Notes under the pieces: model-generated | Told to the model about the DNA's origin: nothing | Seen by the model: the letters and a program-made list of their open reading frames with translations, nothing else | Database searches by the model: none | Assembly: GCA_023259355.1 (NCBI GenBank) | Contig: JAHFQI010000004.1 | Location: 18,268-51,713, forward strand | Length of the DNA stretch: 33,446 nucleotides | Direction of reading: 5' to 3' | Origin: Comamonadaceae bacterium | Lineage (GTDB): Bacteria > Pseudomonadota > Gammaproteobacteria > Burkholderiales > Burkholderiaceae_C | Position numbers and translations under genes: made by a program | In this document: positions 14,763 through 22,281 of the stretch, piece by piece | Numbering within the stretch: the stretch's first letter is position 1 | Layout: each line of letters opens with the position of its first letter

Positions 14763-15074
14763 ATGAAACACGCCCGTGCTTTTGCTTTCGCCATTCTTGC
14801 CGGCGCCACTCTCGTGACCACCGGCTGCGCCGTGGTGCGCGACCAGGAATCCGTTGGCGCCTATGTGGACGACGCCGGCATCACCACCCTGATCAAGGCC
14901 CGGTTCGTGGACGACAAGACCGTGGACGCCGCCGCCATCAGCGTGGAAACGCTCAATGGCACGGTGCAGCTGTCCGGCTTTGCCAAGTCGGCCGCCGAGA
15001 AAGCCCGCGCCGAGCAGATCGCACGCGGCGTGCGGGGCGTCAAGGACGTCCGCAACACCCTGTCGGTGCGTTAA
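14763..15074 (+). CDS. BON-domain periplasmic lipoprotein (OsmY-like)
   Basis: Protein of 103 residues with a signal peptide and a probable lipidation cysteine C22 (LVTTGC; T at -3 is not ideal for a lipobox). A single BON domain follows: DDAGITTLIKARFVDD, the VETLNGTVQLSGF strand pair and GVKDVRNTL. BON domains are thought to bind membranes and are common in stress-induced envelope proteins. AAAGGGG lies about 6 bases before the ATG. Its stop codon shares the TTAA at 15071-15074 with the stop of the convergent nuclease gene. Confidence 0.88.
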   Translation: MKHARAFAFAILAGATLVTTGCAVVRDQESVGAYVDDAGITTLIKARFVDDKTVDAAAISVETLNGTVQLSGFAKSAAEKARAEQIARGVRGVKDVRNTLSVR

Positions 15075-15586
15075 CGCCGCGCCGGCGCGGCCCGCTCGCA
15101 GGGGCCATGGCGCTGGCGAAAATCCCGCGGCCGCTCGGGTGGATCGGCCGCCGCAAACAGGCCAAGCCGGCGGTTTCGCGCGGCGGCTTCCTCGGCCGCG
15201 TACGGGCCGGGGCTGTGGCGGTAGCGGTAAGACCAGGCAAATCCTTCGCGCACCATCCGGGCACCCAGGTCCTCGCCATCAAGCCGCAGGCGCGCCAGCC
15301 CGCGGCCATAGTCGTCATGGCCGCGCACCCGGGCCTCCACACGCCGGTGCAGCGCCCGGCCCGCCAGCGCGTCCCGTGAAGTCCGGCCAGCGGCCTGGCA
15401 GATTTCGGGGGCATCGATCCCGTCGATGCGCAACTTGCGCGGCGGGCCGCCCTCTTCCGGCTGCACCCACAGGGTGTCCCCGTCCGAGACGTAGGTGACC
15501 GTTCCAGAAAATTCCGTCGTCGCATGGGCACTCGATGCAAGCGCCAGGGCGGCGCAGAGCATCAGGCGAAGCATGGGCAGGGTCAT
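15071..15586 (-). CDS. Secreted thermonuclease-like (SNase) protein
   Basis: Staphylococcal-nuclease fold with a signal peptide (MTLPMLRLMLCAALALASS, likely cut after AHA near residue 22). SDGDTLWV supplies the calcium-site Asp. RIDGIDAPE has the same R-x4-D-x2-E spacing as R35/D40/E43 of the Staphylococcus enzyme, and YGRGLARL supplies the R87 equivalent, so it looks catalytically complete. The last 25 residues are Arg/Pro-rich. The ATG at 15586 overlaps the upstream marR-type stop (ATGA), which decides this start over a longer GTG/ATG-less extension. It is likely translated with the regulator. Confidence 0.88.
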   Translation of the reverse strand: MTLPMLRLMLCAALALASSAHATTEFSGTVTYVSDGDTLWVQPEEGGPPRKLRIDGIDAPEICQAAGRTSRDALAGRALHRRVEARVRGHDDYGRGLARLRLDGEDLGARMVREGFAWSYRYRHSPGPYAAEEAAARNRRLGLFAAADPPERPRDFRQRHGPCERAAPARR

Positions 15587-16098
15587 TCCAGGGTGCGCCG
15601 GTGGCGGTGGCCCCGGCGGCGGTCGGCCTTGGGCGCATCGCCGCCCTCCCACGCCTGCGCCATGGCGTCCGCCTGCACCTGCAGACGCGCCAGCATGCCG
15701 TCCAGCGCAGTCACTTCAGACGCACTGAGCACCGACACCAACGCCCGGTTGATGGCCGCCACGCGGGGAAACAGGGCTTCGTACAACGCGCGCCCCGCGG
15801 CGGTGAGTGCCAGCGTCACGGCGCGCCGGTCTCCAGGACGCGGCACGCGCGACACCAGTTTTTTGGCGACCAGGCCCGTGACGGCGCGCGAGGTGCGCGC
15901 CCGGTCCAGCTGGGCCCGGACCGCCAGTTCGGACGACAGGATGCCTTCCGCCTGCCCCAGTTGCGCCAGGATGCGCCATTCGCGCCGCGTGATGCCGAAC
16001 TCCCCTTCGCACAGGCGGGTCACCTGCCCGCCCGCCGTGGCCAGCAGACGTGACACCCCATACAGGAACAGATCGTCCGGCGTCTTGGGTTGGCTCAA
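15583..16098 (-). CDS. MarR-family transcriptional regulator
   Basis: Winged-helix regulator of 171 residues. The MarR core is clear: FGITRREWRILAQLG, the recognition-helix region LDRARTSRAVTGLVAKKLVSR, and the wing PRPGDRRAVTLALTAAGRALYE. The C-terminus is Arg/His-rich (DRRRGHRHRRT). The start is TTG; no ATG or GTG lies upstream before the in-frame stop near 16146, and homologues begin around here. It is divergent from the aldehyde dehydrogenase operon, with a palindrome 37 bases before its start, so local control of that operon and of itself is likely. The ligand is unknown. Confidence 0.9.
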   Translation of the reverse strand: MSQPKTPDDLFLYGVSRLLATAGGQVTRLCEGEFGITRREWRILAQLGQAEGILSSELAVRAQLDRARTSRAVTGLVAKKLVSRVPRPGDRRAVTLALTAAGRALYEALFPRVAAINRALVSVLSASEVTALDGMLARLQVQADAMAQAWEGGDAPKADRRRGHRHRRTLE

Positions 16099-16134
16099 GC
16101 GAAGGTGCGGTATCAGGGTAATTCCCGAGGATGG

Positions 16135-16150
16135 TTGATTAGATCAATCA
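16135..16150. promoter_or_regulatory. Palindromic operator candidate for the MarR regulator
   Basis: TTGAT-TAG-ATCAA is a perfect inverted repeat, nested with a second one, TGATT-N5-AATCA. The AT-rich 16 bases stand out from GC-rich surroundings and lie in the 183-base divergent region between the marR-type gene and the aldehyde dehydrogenase. Size and symmetry fit a MarR dimer site. Confidence 0.55.
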
Positions 16151-16242
16151 TAGGTCCACGGCCTACAGTGGCGCCAAGACAGGAGGCGAGGCATCCCGAC
16201 CACCGGAGTCCTCGACCTCGACGTGGACAGGGACGGCCGACG

Positions 16243-16248
16243 TAATAT
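16243..16248 (+). promoter_or_regulatory. Possible -10 box of the aldehyde dehydrogenase operon
   Basis: TAATAT lies 33 bases before the ATG of the aldehyde dehydrogenase. No convincing -35 hexamer was found at 16-18 bases upstream, so this may need an activator or may be wrong. Confidence 0.25.
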
Positions 16249-16281
16249 CTGAGCCCCGCCACTGACCACGAACATTCCGCC

Positions 16282-17718
16282 ATGACCTACCCCAACACCC
16301 AGCTCCTGATCGACAACCAGTGGTGCGACGCCGCCAACGGCCGCACCATGCCGGTGTTCAACCCCGCCACCGGCCTGGAGATCGGCCGCCTCGCGCATGC
16401 CGGCGTGGCCGACCTGGACCGCGCCCTGGCCGCCGCCCAGCGCGGCTTCGAGACCTGGCGCAACGTGCCCGCCGCCGAACGCTGCGCCGTGATGCGCAAG
16501 GCCGCAGCGCTGATGCGCGAGCGCGCCACGGACATCGCCGCGCTGCTGACCCAGGAACAGGGCAAGCCGCTGGCCGAGGCCCGGGGCGAGACCTTGATGT
16601 CCGCCGACATCATCGAGTGGTTCGCCGAGGAAGGCCGGCGCGTTTACGGCCGCATCGTGCCGGCCCGCAACCTCGCCGGGCAACAAATGGTGCTGAAGGA
16701 CCCGGTCGGCCCGGTGGCGGCGTTCACGCCCTGGAATTTCCCGATCAACCAGGCGGTGCGCAAGGTGTCGGCGGCGCTGGCCACGGGCTGCTCCATCATC
16801 GTCAAGGCGCCCGAAGAAACACCTGCCGCGCCGGCCGCGCTGATCCGCGCCTTTGTCGATGCCGGCGTGCCGGCCGGCGTGATCGGGCTGGTGTTCGGCG
16901 CACCCGCCGAAATATCGAGCTACCTGATCGCCCACCCCGTCATCCGCAAGATCACGTTCACCGGCTCCACGCCCGTGGGCAAGCAACTGGCCGCGCTGGC
17001 GGGCGCCCACATGAAGCGCGTGACCATGGAGCTGGGCGGCCATGCGCCGGTGATCGTGGCGGAAGACGCCGACATCGACGTTGCCATCAAGGCCGCCGGG
17101 TCCGCCAAGTTCCGCAATGCGGGCCAGGTCTGCATCGCCCCCACACGTTTTCTGGTGCACAACAGCATCAAGGGCGATTTCGCGCAGGCCCTGGCACGCC
17201 ATGCCGAGTCACTCACCGTGGGAGATGGCCTGACCAAGGGCACGACCATGGGCCCGCTGGCCAACGACCGGCGGCTGGCCGCCATGCAGCAGCTCACCGA
17301 GGACGCGGTGGCCAAGGGCGCCACGGTGGCGGCCGGCGGCGCGCGCATCGGCACCACCGGCAACTTCTTCGCGCCCACGGTGCTGACCGATGTGCCGCTG
17401 CACGCCGATGTGTTCAACAACGAGCCCTTCGGCCCGATGGCGGCCATCCGCGGTTTTGACCACCTGGAAGAAGCCATCGCCGAGGCCAACCGCCTGCCGT
17501 TTGGCCTGGCCGGCTACGCCTTCACGAAATCGCTGAAGAACGCGCACCTGCTGTCGCAGCGGCTGGAGCTGGGCCTGCTGTGGATCAACCAGCCGGCGCT
17601 GGCCTGGCCCGAAATGCCCTTCGGCGGCGTCAAGGACTCCGGCTATGGCTCGGAGGGCGGCCCCGAGGCGCTGGAGGCCTACCTCACCACCAAATCTGTT
17701 TCGATACTCTGCAACTGA
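16282..17718 (+). CDS. NAD(P)-dependent aldehyde dehydrogenase, succinate-semialdehyde dehydrogenase-like
   Basis: Oxidises an aldehyde to its acid. Complete 478-residue [18 protein letters not shown], Rossmann segment FTGSTPVGK, catalytic glutamate E250 in MELGGHAP, nucleophile C284 in [10 protein letters not shown] (34 residues apart, as is usual), and NNEPFGPM, then [12 protein letters not shown]. The overall pattern resembles GabD-type enzymes, but substrate cannot be assigned. It is the first gene of a plus-strand run with a Bug/TctC protein, sulfatase and SulP transporter, divergent from a MarR regulator. Confidence 0.93.
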
Positions 17719-17729
17719 AAGGAACCCCG

Positions 17730-18716
17730 ATGCGCGATGATCTTCTGACACTTCAACGCCGCCAGATGCTCGCCGCGCTGGGCGGTCTGGCACTGCCCTC
17801 GCTGGCTGGCGCGCAGGCCTTTCCGTCCAAACCCATCCGCGTGCTCATCGGCGTGCCGGCCGGCGGCACCCAGGACATCCTGACCCGGGCGATTGCCGAC
17901 CACGTGCGCCAGTCGCTCGGCCCCATCATCATCGACAACAAATCGGGCGCGGCGGGCCGCATTGCCGCCGAGACCGTCAAGAACGCCGAGCCCGACGGCC
18001 ACACGCTGCTGCTGGGCCCGGCCAGCTTGATGTCGATTTTCCCCAGCGCCTACGGCAAGCTCAACTACGACCCGATCAACGATTTCGCGCCCATCGTCAA
18101 CGCCGCCAGTTTCGAGCTGGCCATGGTGGTGCACCAGGGCGTGCCGGCCAACACCTTGCCGGAGTTCATCGCCTGGGCCAGAACGCAGGGCAACCGCGTC
18201 AGCTTTGCGTCTTACGGTGCGGGCACGCCGTCGCACTTCCTGGGTGAAATGCTCAACCGCGCGGCCGGACTGCAAATGGTGCATGTGCCCTACCGCGGCT
18301 CGACCCCGGCGCGCCAGGACGTGATGGGCGGCACCGTGCCCGTTTACTTCGACACCGTCGGCGGCGCCATCAGCATGCAGCCCACGGGACGCATCAAGGT
18401 TCTGGCCACCAGCGGCGTCAAGCGATCGCCGCCGATGCCCGGCGTCCCGACCTTTGCCGAACAGGGCCTCAAGGACGTCGTGGCCTCCGCCTGGTTTGGC
18501 TACTACGCACCGGCCAAAACACCCAGGCCCGTGCTCGACAAGCTGCGCGCCGAATTCACCAAAGCCGTGAATTCGCGCGAAGTCCGCCAGCAACTGCTGG
18601 TCAACGGCATGTACCCGGTGGGCGATGGGCCCGACGCACTGCTCAAGACCATGCGCGAAGACACCGCCCGCTGGGCGCAGGTCATCAAGGCCACCGGTTT
18701 CAAGGCGGCGGACTGA
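17730..18716 (+). CDS. Bug/TctC-family periplasmic solute-binding protein
   Basis: Extracytoplasmic binding protein of 328 residues, of the kind greatly expanded in Burkholderiales. The N-terminus (LQRRQMLAALGGLALPSLAGAQA) looks like a signal peptide with a twin-arginine-like RR. Family marks: FPSKPIRVLIGVPAGGTQDILTR, the IIDNKSGAAGRIAAE loop, VPYRGSTPARQDVMGG and LATSGVKRSPPMPGVPTFAEQG. No TctA/TctB membrane genes lie in the window, so it is an orphan receptor or works with a distant system. AAAGGAA lies 6 bases before the ATG. Its stop overlaps the sulfatase start (TGATG), a strong coupling sign. Confidence 0.93.
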   Translation: MRDDLLTLQRRQMLAALGGLALPSLAGAQAFPSKPIRVLIGVPAGGTQDILTRAIADHVRQSLGPIIIDNKSGAAGRIAAETVKNAEPDGHTLLLGPASLMSIFPSAYGKLNYDPINDFAPIVNAASFELAMVVHQGVPANTLPEFIAWARTQGNRVSFASYGAGTPSHFLGEMLNRAAGLQMVHVPYRGSTPARQDVMGGTVPVYFDTVGGAISMQPTGRIKVLATSGVKRSPPMPGVPTFAEQGLKDVVASAWFGYYAPAKTPRPVLDKLRAEFTKAVNSREVRQQLLVNGMYPVGDGPDALLKTMREDTARWAQVIKATGFKAAD

Positions 18717-20047
18717 TGGCCACCGCACGCCCCAACATCATCTTCATCGTCGCCGACGACCTCGGTTTTGCCGACCTGGGCTGCTACGGCGGCCGCGACG
18801 CCGAATTCGGCCCGGTCTCCCCCGTGCTCGACCGGCTGGCCGCGAATGGCCTGAAATTCACCCAGGGTTATTCCAACTCGCCGGTGTGCTCGCCCACGCG
18901 CTTTGCGCTGATGACGGCGCGCTACCAGTACCGCCTGCGCGGCGCGGCCGAGGAGCCCATCAACAGCAAGAGCCGCGGCAGCACCACGCTGGGCCTGCCG
19001 CCCGAACATCCCACCCTGCCCTCGCTGCTGCGCGCCAGCGGCTACCGCACGGCGCTGATGGGCAAGTGGCACCTGGGCTACCCGCCGGCGTTCGGGCCGC
19101 TGCGCTCGGGCTACGAGGAATTTTTCGGACCCATGGCCGGCGGCGTGGACTACTTCACGCACTGCGACTCGCGCGGCCAGCACGACCTGTGGTTTGGCGA
19201 GGAAGCCCGCACCGAGGAAGGTTACCTGACCGACCTGATCTCTCAGCGCTCGGTGGACTACATCGAACGCATGGCGGACGGCGCCAAGGCCGGCACGCCG
19301 TTCTTTTTGAGCATGCACTACACCGCGCCGCACTGGCCCTGGGAAACGCGCGACGACGAGGCCCTGGCGCAGGAGGTGAAGGACAACCTCTTTCACCTTC
19401 ATGGCGGCAACATCCACACCTACCGCCGCATGATCCACCACATGGACGAAGGCATCGGGCAGGTGGTCGAGGCGCTGCGTGCGCAAGGGCTGCTCGACAA
19501 CACGCTGATCGTTTTCACCAGCGACAACGGCGGCGAGCGTTTCTCCGACAACTGGCCGCTGGTGGGCGGCAAGATGGACCTGACTGAAGGCGGCATCCGC
19601 GTGCCCTGGATCGCGCACTGGCCCGCCGCCATCGCCCCTGGGGGCGTGAGCACGCAGCAATGCATGACGATGGACTGGTCGGCCACGATGCTGGACGCAG
19701 GCCGTGCACCGGCCGACCCCGCCTGCCCGCTGGACGGCATCTCGCTGCTGCCCGTGCTGCGCGATGCGGACCACAGCTTCCGCCGCCCGCTGCACTGGCG
19801 CATGAACCACCGCGGCCAGCGCGCCCTGCGCGACGGCGACTGGAAATACCTGCGCGTGGACGGCAACGACTACCTGTTCAACATCCCGGCCGACGAACGC
19901 GAGCGCGCCAACCTGGGCAGGCGCGAGCCGGTGCGGCTGCAGGCCCTGCGCGAGGCCTGGGAAGCCTGGAACGCCGGCATGCCGCCCATCCCCGAGGACG
20001 CCACGGTCAGCCTGGGCTACTCGGTCAAGGACATGCCGCAGCGTTAG
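18716..20047 (+). CDS. Type I (formylglycine) sulfatase
   Basis: Arylsulfatase-type hydrolase of 443 residues. IVADDLGFADLGCYG gives the metal-binding Asp pair D14-D15; the sulfatase signature is C58-S-P-T-R62, where the cysteine must be converted to formylglycine; MGKWHLGY and FTSDNGGE supply further active-site residues. There is no signal peptide, so the enzyme appears cytoplasmic, unlike many secreted sulfatases. No formylglycine-generating enzyme is in the window. It is tightly coupled to the binding protein upstream and followed 9 bases later by a SulP transporter. It hydrolyses a sulfate ester whose identity is unknown. Confidence 0.93.
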   Translation: MATARPNIIFIVADDLGFADLGCYGGRDAEFGPVSPVLDRLAANGLKFTQGYSNSPVCSPTRFALMTARYQYRLRGAAEEPINSKSRGSTTLGLPPEHPTLPSLLRASGYRTALMGKWHLGYPPAFGPLRSGYEEFFGPMAGGVDYFTHCDSRGQHDLWFGEEARTEEGYLTDLISQRSVDYIERMADGAKAGTPFFLSMHYTAPHWPWETRDDEALAQEVKDNLFHLHGGNIHTYRRMIHHMDEGIGQVVEALRAQGLLDNTLIVFTSDNGGERFSDNWPLVGGKMDLTEGGIRVPWIAHWPAAIAPGGVSTQQCMTMDWSATMLDAGRAPADPACPLDGISLLPVLRDADHSFRRPLHWRMNHRGQRALRDGDWKYLRVDGNDYLFNIPADERERANLGRREPVRLQALREAWEAWNAGMPPIPEDATVSLGYSVKDMPQR

Positions 20048-20056
20048 CATCGGCGT

Positions 20057-21742
20057 ATGGCTTTCGTGCACCGCTGGTTTCCGTTCCTCGCCTGGCCCCG
20101 CCCGGACGCCGCGCTGCTGCGCGGTGAAGTGCTCGCGGGCCTGACCGTCGGGCTCATGGTCATTCCGCAGGGCGTGGCCTACGCGGCGCTGGCCGGCATG
20201 CCGCTGATCACGGGCATCTATGCCTCCATGCTGCCGGCGCTGGTGGCGGCCCTGTTCAGCGCCTCCACGCGGTTGTCGGTCGGCCCCACGGCGCTCTCCT
20301 GCCTATTGGTGGGAAGCTCACTCACCGGCCTGGCCGAGCCCGGCAGTGCGCGCTGGGTCGAACTGGCCGTGTGGCTGGCCCTGCTGACCGGCGCGCTGCA
20401 GGTGGCGCTGGGGTTCCTGCGTTTTGGCTGGCTGCTCAACATCATCAGCTCGCCGGTGCTCATGGGATTCACGCAGGCGGCGGCGCTGCTGATCATTTCG
20501 TCGCAGCTGCCGGCGCTGCTCGGCTTCAAGGCCGGCTGGAGCCAATGGCTGACGCAGCCGGGAATTCACGGCGCCTCGGCGGCGTTTGGGCTGGCCAGCC
20601 TGGCGCTGCTGGTGCTGGTGCGCCGCTGGCGTCCGGCGTTTCCGTCCGTGCTGTTCATCGTTGCGGGTGCCGCTGCCATCAGCGCGGGGATCGGTTTCGA
20701 AGCCGCCGGCGGCAGCGTCGTAGGCACCTTGCCCGCGGGACTGCCTGCGCTGGTTCTGCCGGGCCTGCTGGACTGGCACACCCTAAGCCTGCTGCTGATG
20801 CCCACCCTCGTCATCACGCTCGTGAGTTTCCTGGAAACCGCCTCCAGCGCCAAGGTGGAGAACCAGCGCGAGGGCCAGCGCTGGGACCAGGACCAGGACC
20901 TCGTCGGTCAGGGACTGGCCAAGATCGCCTCGGGGCTGAGCGGGGCTTTTCCCACCAGTTCCTCGTTCTCGCGCTCGGCGCTCAACCTCTATGCGGGCGC
21001 CAGGACCGGCTGGGCCACCGTGGTGTCGGTGGGCGTGGTGCTGATCGCGCTGATGCTGTTCACGCCCACGCTCCGGCATGTGCCGCAGGCCGTGCTGGCC
21101 GCCATCGTGGTGGTGGCGGTGGTCGGGCTGCTGAAACCCGCCGGGCTGGTTCGGCTCTGGCACGTCTCGCGCGTGGAGGCCACGACCGCTGGCGTTACCT
21201 TCCTGATCACGCTGCTGGCATCGCCGCAGCTGTATTGGGGCGTGCTGGCCGGCGTGCTGATGGGCCTGTCGCACTTCCTGTACCAGCGACTGCACCCGCG
21301 CATCATCGAAGTCGGGCTGCACCCCGACGGCAGCCTGCGCGATCGCCACCTGTGGCACCTGCCGCCGCTGGCGCCCCATCTGTACGCGCTTCGCATGGAC
21401 GCCGAACTCGACTTTGCCGCCGCCAGCGACTTCGAGCGCGCGGTCGTGGAACACCTGGGCGCGCACACCAGCATCGCCCATGTGTGCCTGTTCGCCCAGC
21501 CCATCAACCGGATCGACGCCACCGGCGTGGAAACCTTCGGCCAACTGCGCCGGCAGCTGGCCGCGCGCGGCGTCACGCTGCACATCAGCGGCATCAAGCT
21601 GCCCGTGGAACACGTGCTGCGGCGTGCCGGTGAACTGCCCGAGGGACCGCACCTGCGCCTGTACCGCACGGATGCCGACGCGCTGGTGGCGCTGGCGAAG
21701 CTGGAAGCGCTGCCGGCCGACCTGGCCGCGGCGATGATCTGA
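20057..21742 (+). CDS. SulP-family anion transporter with STAS domain
   Basis: Inner-membrane transporter of 561 residues with about 10-14 hydrophobic helices up to residue ~415. The SulP N-terminus is visible ([30 protein letters not shown]), as is the [13 protein letters not shown] segment. The C-terminal STAS domain covers about 420-545 ([32 protein letters not shown]). Members move sulfate, bicarbonate, dicarboxylates or molybdate, so sulfate is suggested mainly by the sulfatase next door. Direction (uptake or release) is open. Confidence 0.93.
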
Positions 21743-21774: not shown

Positions 21775-22281
21775 TTAACCGCCGACCACGCTGGCGCCCG
21801 CCTGGGCAATCCGGCCGTCCTCGGCCGATTGCACCCCCGACACGCCGATGGCGCCGATGATGGCGCCGTCCCGCATCAGGGGAATGCCGCCTTCGAGCGG
21901 GCACAAGCCCTCGATGGACAGCAGCCGCAACCCCGCTCCACCGGCCGCAATCGCATCCTCGAAGACCTTCGTCGGGCGCTTGAAGTTGACGGCCGTCAGG
22001 GCCTTGGCCTGCGCGACCTGAATGCTGGCGTAATGGACATCGTCCATCTTGTGAAGAACCACCAGGTGACCGGAGCTGTCAACCACGGCAATGACCATCT
22101 TCCAGCCCTGTGCGAGCGCCTGGCTCTCGGCGCGCGACACAGCCTGCCTGGCCAGTTCCAGCGTGATGGGAGGCCCGTACGGGGGCGAGGACGGGACAGC
22201 GGTTTTGTTCAAATGAATCTCCGGCAATCGGTTGACCTTGAGACGGCGGGCTTCTTCGACAGCAGCCATGCACATGCACAT
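21775..22281 (-). CDS. GlcG/HbpS-family protein
   Basis: 168-residue protein of the GlcG/HbpS-like (DUF336) family: [50 protein letters not shown] and the Gly-rich [22 protein letters not shown]. Some members bind heme or cobalamin; many sit beside glycolate or other catabolic genes, and the role here is unknown. An N-terminal stretch of about 35 residues precedes the domain. Three in-frame ATGs stand in ATGTGC repeats (22281, 22275, 22269); GGGGA 7 bases before the first favours 22281. It converges with the SulP gene and diverges from thyA. Confidence 0.85.

What the first reader, a model, noticed from the sequence alone, without database searches (positions are those of the whole stretch)
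15583..21742. Possible organosulfate-use locus: MarR, nuclease / ALDH, Bug receptor, sulfatase, SulP
A divergent MarR regulator faces a tight plus-strand run: aldehyde dehydrogenase, Bug/TctC receptor, sulfatase (overlapping start), SulP. One reading is capture of a sulfate ester by the receptor, intracellular sulfate cleavage, oxidation of the aldehyde from the released alcohol, and sulfate movement by SulP. No alcohol dehydrogenase or formylglycine-generating enzyme is present, and I know no described system with this set.
Basis: inference. Interest (0 to 1): 0.65.

Follow-up and report, generated by a model that had tools for sequence, protein, structure and literature searches.

The report
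Receptor-linked sulfatase operon without known maturase
A regulated bacterial gene set that appears to take up a small sulfate-carrying compound and cut off its sulfate inside the cell is common in related freshwater and soil bacteria, and most of the related genomes checked show neither of the two known helper enzymes that normally switch on this kind of sulfatase.

Summary
The genes are real and at the stated coordinates: divergent MarR, then ALDH, Bug/TctC receptor, sulfatase and SulP, tightly packed. The set is not local. In the 80 closest named relatives (those with enough flank), Bug lies directly upstream of the sulfatase in 72 of 77, SulP downstream in 46 of 72, divergent MarR in 47 of 70; ALDH is an accessory (4 of 70). 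A palindrome, TTGATTNGATCAA, marks the MarR intergenic region: 25 of 51 exact, 46 of 51 with at most two mismatches. The sulfatase keeps the type I catalytic residues and C-S-P-T-R, has no leader, and is nearest in fold to S1_19 carbohydrate sulfatases. The ALDH is nearest to alpha-ketoglutaric semialdehyde dehydrogenase. I read it as a substrate-inducible organosulfate uptake and cytosolic desulfation operon; substrate and activity are untested. The unexpected point: the missing formylglycine-generating enzyme is missing genome-wide. Of 139 same-family genomes with this sulfatase, 118 showed neither FGE nor anSME, and FGE genes in this family mostly sit beside other sulfatases. So the enzyme is either matured by an unidentified system, as proposed for E. 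coli, or works unmodified. The operon is a new variant of a known kind; the maturation question is old and here becomes testable.

The parts
15583..16098 (-). MarR-family regulator (TTG start), divergent from the operon
   Evidence: Pfam MarR_2 5.1e-15; best NCBIfam model HpaR at 44 bits, far below its cut-off of 121; divergent MarR in 47 of 70 named loci
16135..16147 (.). Palindrome TTGATTAGATCAA, probable MarR operator
   Evidence: Only site in the window at up to 1 mismatch, 0.05 expected; 25 of 51 MarR intergenic regions exact, 41 with at most 1 and 46 with at most 2 mismatches; letter shuffles reached 2 mismatches in 0.35 of 51 and never fewer
16282..17718 (+). Aldehyde dehydrogenase, KGSADH type; accessory gene
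   Evidence: 9zh8 (aldehyde dehydrogenase) 831 bits and 5x5t (alpha-ketoglutaric semialdehyde dehydrogenase) 827 bits, next hit 514; ALDH upstream in 4 of 70 named loci
17730..18716 (+). Bug/TctC periplasmic receptor with an export leader (by eye)
   Evidence: Pfam TctC 9.5e-60; AlphaFold2 pLDDT 90.5; nearest folds are terephthalate-binding proteins 8hka, 7nds; a Bug directly upstream of the sulfatase in 72 of 77 named loci
18716..20047 (+). Type I (alkaline-phosphatase-fold) sulfatase, Cys type, no leader, so probably cytosolic
   Evidence: Pfam Sulfatase 196 bits; D14, D15, C58, R62, K117, H119, H206, D270, N271, K286 invariant in 48 chosen sequences at 52-91% identity (roles recalled); nearest PDB folds S1_19 and S1_16
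18887..18901 (+). C-S-P-T-R signature (Cys58)
   Evidence: CSPTR in 80 of 80 sulfatases of the named loci; C58, S59 and R62 invariant, P60 and T61 at least 90% in 48 sequences
20057..21742 (+). SulP anion transporter with STAS domain
   Evidence: Pfam Sulfate_transp 264 bits and STAS 44 bits; same-strand SulP downstream in 46 of 72 named loci, 41 of them within 250 bp
15071..15652 (-). SNase-type nuclease ORF, frequent neighbour on the MarR side; functional link not shown
   Evidence: Pfam SNase 45 bits; SNase upstream on the minus strand in 25 of 70 named loci

Best explanation
A MarR-controlled operon for taking up a small organosulfate and removing its sulfate in the cytosol. Bug captures the sulfated compound in the periplasm and hands it to a membrane carrier encoded elsewhere (inferred). 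The leaderless type I sulfatase hydrolyses the ester in the cytosol (fold, catalytic residues and lack of a leader shown by sequence; activity inferred). SulP moves the sulfate set free, most likely outward when the compound is used for carbon (inferred). MarR represses from TTGATTNGATCAA and is released by the compound or its product (site conservation shown; repression inferred). In this genome a KGSADH-type ALDH has joined the operon, which would fit a sugar-acid-like product here (inferred). If Cys58 works as formylglycine, it must be made without a recognised FGE or anSME in most carriers, so an unidentified maturation route is likely (inferred).
For: Gene packing. Bug-sulfatase-SulP with divergent MarR recurs across genera. 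Operator-like palindrome; the only other exact copy in the held genome lies inside the start of another reading frame. Intact catalytic set and fold. Bug fold close to carboxylate receptors. Distant relatives swap partners but keep the kinds: an NMT1/SsuA-like binding protein directly upstream (L078), a chromate-transporter-family protein plus SDR and Gfo/Idh genes (L296), an SDR (L298), GntR and MFS genes (L074). Maturation: 118 of 139 carriers, 106 of 123 at least 90% complete and at most 5% contaminated, and 87 of 96 at least 99% complete and at most 3% contaminated, show neither FGE nor anSME.
Against: No substrate, expression or activity data. The membrane partner of Bug (TctAB) was not searched for. 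SulP is missing downstream in 26 of 72 loci and MarR in 23 of 70, and all three together occur in only 23 of 62, so SulP and MarR are not indispensable. In a more divergent set (L291-L304, 52-65% identity) Bug is directly upstream in only 5 of 14 loci. 21 of 139 carriers do have FGE or anSME, as do 3 of 12 carriers outside the family for FGE. SulP could as well import.
Confidence: 0.68

Rival explanations
1. Sulfur scavenging rather than carbon use: the sulfatase frees sulfate for assimilation and SulP imports sulfate, all serving sulfur supply.
For: Sulfatase with a sulfate-permease-family protein downstream in 46 of 72 loci; sulfate esters are described as a major form of soil organic sulfur (PMC4267179, start of abstract in the listing).
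Against: The regulator is a MarR, with a LysR (L066) and a GntR (L074) in two relatives scanned, not one of the sulfur-starvation regulators I know (recalled); Bug receptors are mostly tied to carboxylate uptake (recalled). A LysR can be a sulfur regulator, so this is not decisive.
Confidence: 0.25
2. The enzyme works with an unmodified cysteine, so no maturation system is needed.
For: 118 of 139 carriers show neither known maturase; unmodified Ensifer choline sulfatase turns over, slowly (PMC6189696, abstract and passages).
Against: CSPTR followed by [MI]T[AGMV]R, close to the modification signature, is kept in 80 of 80 sulfatases of the named loci; PMC6189696 expects formylglycine to raise activity 5 to 2500-fold (passage).
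Confidence: 0.22
3. A divergent or unsequenced FGE or anSME escaped the searches.
For: The FGE protein search scored only the top four candidates per genome; many genomes are drafts and the window's own is 87.8% complete; the PF03781 scan covered 79 of 139 carriers; hits below those fetched were not read.
Against: In those 79 genomes all candidates were scored. The motif GGSx[LMIV]CxxxxC was found in 29 of 30 FGE loci but in only 4 of the 30 loci returned (L079-L082), 0 of 20 weaker hits and 0 of 5 stretches of the window's genome (aligned positions). G263, G358 and G018 have no PF03781 hit at all and no anSME over the cut-off, at 99-100% completeness.
Confidence: 0.12
4. The substrate is a sulfated sugar or sugar acid, with KGSADH finishing its breakdown.
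For: ALDH is close to KGSADH; nearest sulfatase structures are S1_19 and S1_16 carbohydrate sulfatases; Gfo/Idh and SDR genes upstream of one distant homologue, L296, with an IlvD/EDD-type dehydratase on the other strand.
Against: ALDH is in only 4 of 70 loci; about 30% identity to carrageenan sulfatases does not transfer specificity; the Bug fold is nearest to aromatic dicarboxylate receptors.
Confidence: 0.3
5. The substrate is a sulfated aromatic acid.
For: Bug is nearest in fold to terephthalate receptors TBP and TphC at 33-36% identity; MarR regulators often sense aromatic acids (recalled).
Against: Bug specificity changes easily (recalled); the sulfatase is nearest to carbohydrate sulfatases.
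Confidence: 0.3

Closest known systems
S1_19 and S1_16 carbohydrate sulfatases (ZgCgsA 9hh2, PsS1_19B 6psm, Ps i-CgsB 6b0j, 9fo1)
   Same: Type I sulfatase fold; 30-33% identity; catalytic positions align in the two pairs printed
   Different: No leader here; paired with a Bug receptor and SulP; substrate unknown
Pseudomonas aeruginosa arylsulfatase PAS (1hdh)
   Same: Same fold; Cys-type and cytosolic (recalled)
   Different: 25% identity over the aligned region; different operon partners (recalled)
slf operon of Psychrobacter plasmid pP62BP1 (PMC3346939, passages read)
   Same: Divergent regulator facing a predicted organic-sulfate operon with an NAD-dependent aldehyde dehydrogenase
   Different: Metallo-beta-lactamase-related (type 3) alkyl sulfatase, AraC regulator, GMC oxidoreductase and CoA ligase; no Bug or SulP among the five genes
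Acesulfame sulfatase cluster of Shinella (PMC11500405, passages read)
   Same: Formylglycine-type sulfatase gene in a small-molecule catabolic setting with an export protein (TauE/SafE)
   Different: LysR, amidase and another exporter family; that host carries FGE genes
Choline sulfatase BetC (PMC6189696, abstract and passages)
   Same: Type I sulfatase for a small sulfate ester
   Different: The choline-sulfatase model scores 112 bits against a cut-off of 433
Alpha-ketoglutaric semialdehyde dehydrogenase 5x5t (Azospirillum; organism recalled)
   Same: 827-bit match over the whole length
   Different: Placed with a sulfatase operon here

Membership tests
Type I (formylglycine) sulfatase | C/S-x-P/A-x-R signature and metal/catalytic residues | tested here: met
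   C58 and R62 plus D14, D15, K117, H119, H206, D270, N271, K286 invariant in 48 sequences; residue roles recalled
Type I (formylglycine) sulfatase | Alkaline-phosphatase-type sulfatase fold | tested here: met
   AlphaFold2 pLDDT 88.6 and Foldseek E 8.8e-38 to 9hh2
Type I (formylglycine) sulfatase | A known maturase (FGE or anSME) in the genome | tested here: not met
   None found in G000; neither in 118 of 139 carriers. An absent maturase gene is not the same as absent formylglycine.
Type I (formylglycine) sulfatase | Formylglycine at Cys58; sulfatase activity | not testable with these tools
   Needs mass spectrometry and assays
SulfAtlas S1_19 / S1_16 | Subfamily membership and carrageenan activity | tested here: inconclusive
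   30-33% identity to solved members; SulfAtlas models not available here; activity untested
Choline sulfatase (TIGR03417) | Score above the curated cut-off | tested here: not met
   112 bits against 433
Bug/TctC receptor | PF03401 domain and Bug fold | tested here: met
   202.9 bits against a cut-off of 27; 7nds, 2f5x, 2qpq matched
Tripartite tricarboxylate transporter | TctA and TctB membrane subunits alongside | tested here: not met
   Not among the seven proteins scanned between 15071 and 22281; the rest of the window and genome was not searched for them
Alpha-ketoglutaric semialdehyde dehydrogenase | Close similarity to a named enzyme over the whole length | tested here: met
   827 bits to 5x5t; the NCBIfam KGSADH model NF042993 is below cut-off, 346 against 770 bits; activity not tested
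SulP | Sulfate_transp plus STAS domains | tested here: met
   TIGR00815 at 314 bits is below its cut-off of 380

The most novel reading that the evidence does not exclude
Comamonadaceae-type Burkholderiales carry an unidentified, third formylglycine-generating system that serves cytosolic Cys-type sulfatases. This Bug-linked sulfatase would be its conserved client, while FGE in the same bacteria serves a separate set of sulfatases, at least half of which look exported.
Probability: 0.5. Interest if true: 0.8.

Novelty: new variant of a known kind. Interest (0 to 1): 0.56.

Why it matters
It describes a widespread candidate organosulfate-use operon of freshwater and soil bacteria with a defined candidate operator, so its inducer can be sought directly. 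More important, it offers a family of bacteria, with named isolates, in which most carriers of a conserved Cys-type sulfatase show neither FGE nor anSME. That makes the question raised for E. coli (a third sulfatase maturation system; Benjdia 2007, seen only as cited in PMC6189696) open to comparative genomics and genetics. If the enzyme is active, it also shows that maturase genes are an unsafe guide to sulfatase activity in this family, in contrast to the guideline in PMC3920027 (passage read).

Tried and rejected
ALDH as a core step was rejected (4 of 70 loci). PF03781 hits of about 195-216 bits looked like FGE by score; nearly all of those returned carry RGGSWHTW or a near variant in place of the Cys pair and were not counted as FGE; NirV-like is a name recalled. 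The FGE-family genes of the window's genome are EgtB-like by length and sequence, L006 beside an EgtD-like frame (names recalled), and lack the Cys-pair motif. A sigma-70 promoter scan found none (shuffles 0.6) and one terminator-like site inside a gene, fewer than shuffles. An acesulfame-type cluster was considered because of PMC11500405 and set aside (no amidase or LysR beside the sulfatase here). Literature: ten full-text searches; three returned nothing, two listings were capped (15 of 90; 12 of 24). No listed paper was recognised from title and abstract start as describing this operon; the library lacks most subscription papers. Limits: neighbour names rest on a crude ORF caller that missed the sulfatase in L054 and L077 and miscalled SulP in some, so counts come from the tblastn census, which used one query per gene and covers the 80 closest named loci of a capped scan. 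Shuffles keep letters only, and related genomes are not independent. Outside the family 3 of 12 carriers have a Cys-pair FGE (L311-L313); anSME was not tested there. Of the six anSME-bearing carriers one (G101) is below the curated cut-off. Leaders of FGE-linked sulfatases were judged by eye in stretches from 19 of the 33 FGE genomes, 16 of which held a readable sulfatase hit: clear leader in 8, hydrophobic stretch in 4, none in 2, frame unreadable in 2.
Full report
Observation. MarR (15583-16098, minus) diverges from ALDH (16282-17718), Bug (17730-18716), sulfatase (18716-20047) and SulP (20057-21742). On the plus strand the junctions are an 11-base gap, a 1-base overlap and a 9-base gap, so co-transcription is likely (inferred). 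The window is part of contig C219 of a 3.8 Mb, 236-contig genome, 87.8% complete.

Conservation. The sulfatase was found at E <= 1e-60 in 139 of 399 same-family genomes. At E <= 1e-100 it was in 20 of 300 order-level genomes, 8 of the same family and 12 of others, and in 3 of 274 class-level ones, all three of the same family. A capped scan of named genomes kept the 80 closest loci, including Polaromonas, Variovorax, Ramlibacter, Limnohabitans, Curvibacter, Ottowia and Acidovorax. Among those with enough flank, Bug is directly upstream on the same strand in 72 of 77, MarR divergent upstream in 47 of 70, SulP downstream in 46 of 72 (41 within 250 bp), SNase in 25 of 70, ALDH in 4 of 70, and MarR, Bug and SulP together in 23 of 62. 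Other Bug genes in the flanks number 30 in 723 kb; 39 of 80 loci have two or more Bugs upstream. In more distant homologues the Bug link thins: 5 of 14 among L291-L304. In some distant loci other partners appear: an NMT1/SsuA-like binding protein directly upstream (L078), a chromate-transporter-family protein with SDR and Gfo/Idh oxidoreductases (L296), an SDR (L298), GntR and MFS genes (L074), while others gave no Pfam hit (L303).

Regulation. The window has one site TTGATTAGATCAA at 16135-16147, between MarR and ALDH. In 51 MarR intergenic regions (the window and 50 named loci with a detected MarR), 25 have TTGATTNGATCAA exactly, 41 with at most one and 46 with at most two mismatches. In letter shuffles two mismatches were reached in 0.35 of 51 regions and fewer never. 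A looser form gave 26 of 51 against a shuffle mean of 0.015. The only other exact copy in the held genome lies inside the start of a reading frame on C124. MarR binding is inferred.

Proteins. In 48 chosen sulfatases at 52-91% identity the expected catalytic residues are invariant, and CSPTR is in 80 of 80 sulfatases of the named loci. The window protein starts MATARPNIIFIVADD, with no leader; in L194 the Bug match ends two bases before the first aligned sulfatase residue, leaving no room for one. AlphaFold2 gives pLDDT 88.6, and the nearest PDB folds are S1_19 and S1_16 carbohydrate sulfatases at 30-33% identity. The ALDH matches 9zh8 and the alpha-ketoglutaric semialdehyde dehydrogenase 5x5t at 831 and 827 bits, the next chain at 514. 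The Bug model (pLDDT 90.5) is nearest to terephthalate-binding proteins. These clues point two ways, to sugar acids and to aromatic acids, and I do not name the substrate.

Maturation. The window's genome has three FGE-family genes above the Pfam cut-off, EgtB-like by eye and without the Cys-pair motif, and no anSME. Over the same 399 genomes a Cys-pair FGE query matched 33 and the anSME model 16 at E <= 1e-40, 14 of them over its cut-off. Of the 30 FGE loci returned, 29 show the Cys pair and one (L134) does not cover it. Among the 139 carriers 15 have FGE and 6 anSME, none both, leaving 118 with neither; 106 of 123 at least 90% complete and at most 5% contaminated, and 87 of 96 at least 99% complete and at most 3% contaminated. 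Carriage of this sulfatase is not associated with FGE (15 of 139 against 18 of 260, Fisher p = 0.19) or anSME (6 of 139 against 10 of 260, p = 0.79). A PF03781 scan of 79 of the 139 carriers, all candidates scored, gave hits in 75. Of the 30 loci it returned, 4 have the Cys-pair motif, and of 20 weaker hits fetched none has it. Four genomes had no hit at all: G263, G358, G018 and G128; G128 has an anSME, the other three none over the cut-off. Of 30 FGE loci, 24 have another sulfatase within about 1.5 kb, at profile scores of 267 bits or less where the window's sulfatase scores 900. Of 16 such loci read in longer stretches, 8 have a clear export leader by eye, 4 a hydrophobic stretch, 2 none, 2 unreadable. 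Outside the family 3 of 12 carriers have a Cys-pair FGE, so the separation is not absolute.

Interpretation. The best account is a substrate-inducible organosulfate uptake and cytosolic desulfation operon. Shown by sequence: gene set, order, conservation, operator-like site, catalytic residues, lack of leader. Inferred: uptake by Bug through a carrier encoded elsewhere, hydrolysis, sulfate movement by SulP, repression by MarR. The lack of recognised maturases in most carriers leaves an unidentified maturation route or an unmodified cysteine; the kept signature favours the first. The E. coli precedent is Benjdia 2007, seen only as cited in PMC6189696, whose passages say the E. coli machinery is unidentified and describe slow turnover by an unmodified choline sulfatase.

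Novelty. The sulfatase, Bug, MarR and SulP families are known; the conserved combination was not found in ten full-text searches of an open-access library (listed under Tried and rejected), which cannot exclude print elsewhere. I rate the operon a new variant of a known kind. The maturation pattern extends a known open question to a family with named isolates.

Noticed in passing
L083-L104 and L106-L108, related genomes: A uniform group of FGE-family (PF03781) proteins at about 195-216 bits carries RGGSWHTW or near variants in place of the Cys pair; such genes risk being named formylglycine-generating enzymes.
   Followed up: partly
window 21775-22281 (-): HbpS-like (PF03928) gene just after SulP on the opposite strand; thymidylate synthase-like and dihydrofolate reductase-like frames follow (names recalled from sequence).
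   Followed up: no
L217 (CALQKH020000003.1): A contig filed under an Akkermansia muciniphila MAG carries Bug, sulfatase (81% identity) and SulP as in Comamonadaceae; probable misbinning or mislabelling.
   Followed up: no
L310:5009-6526 (-), same genome as the window: A second sulfatase with CVPAR, choline-sulfatase-like but below the curated cut-off, 274 against 433 bits, in a genome where no FGE was found.
   Followed up: partly
L309:5215-6810 (-), same genome as the window: Phosphoethanolamine-lipid A transferase (NF028537 at 589 bits, cut-off 500), the best PF00884 hit of the genome but not a sulfatase.
   Followed up: no
L080:1480-2622 (-): An FGE with an N-terminal RRRLLGGG stretch resembling a twin-arginine leader; its sulfatase-like neighbour also has a leader by eye (L268). 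FGE may act outside the cytosol in some Burkholderiales.
   Followed up: no
L075 and L076: More distant sulfatase copies (62% identity) share a neighbourhood of a Gcw_chp protein and an ammonium transporter.
   Followed up: no
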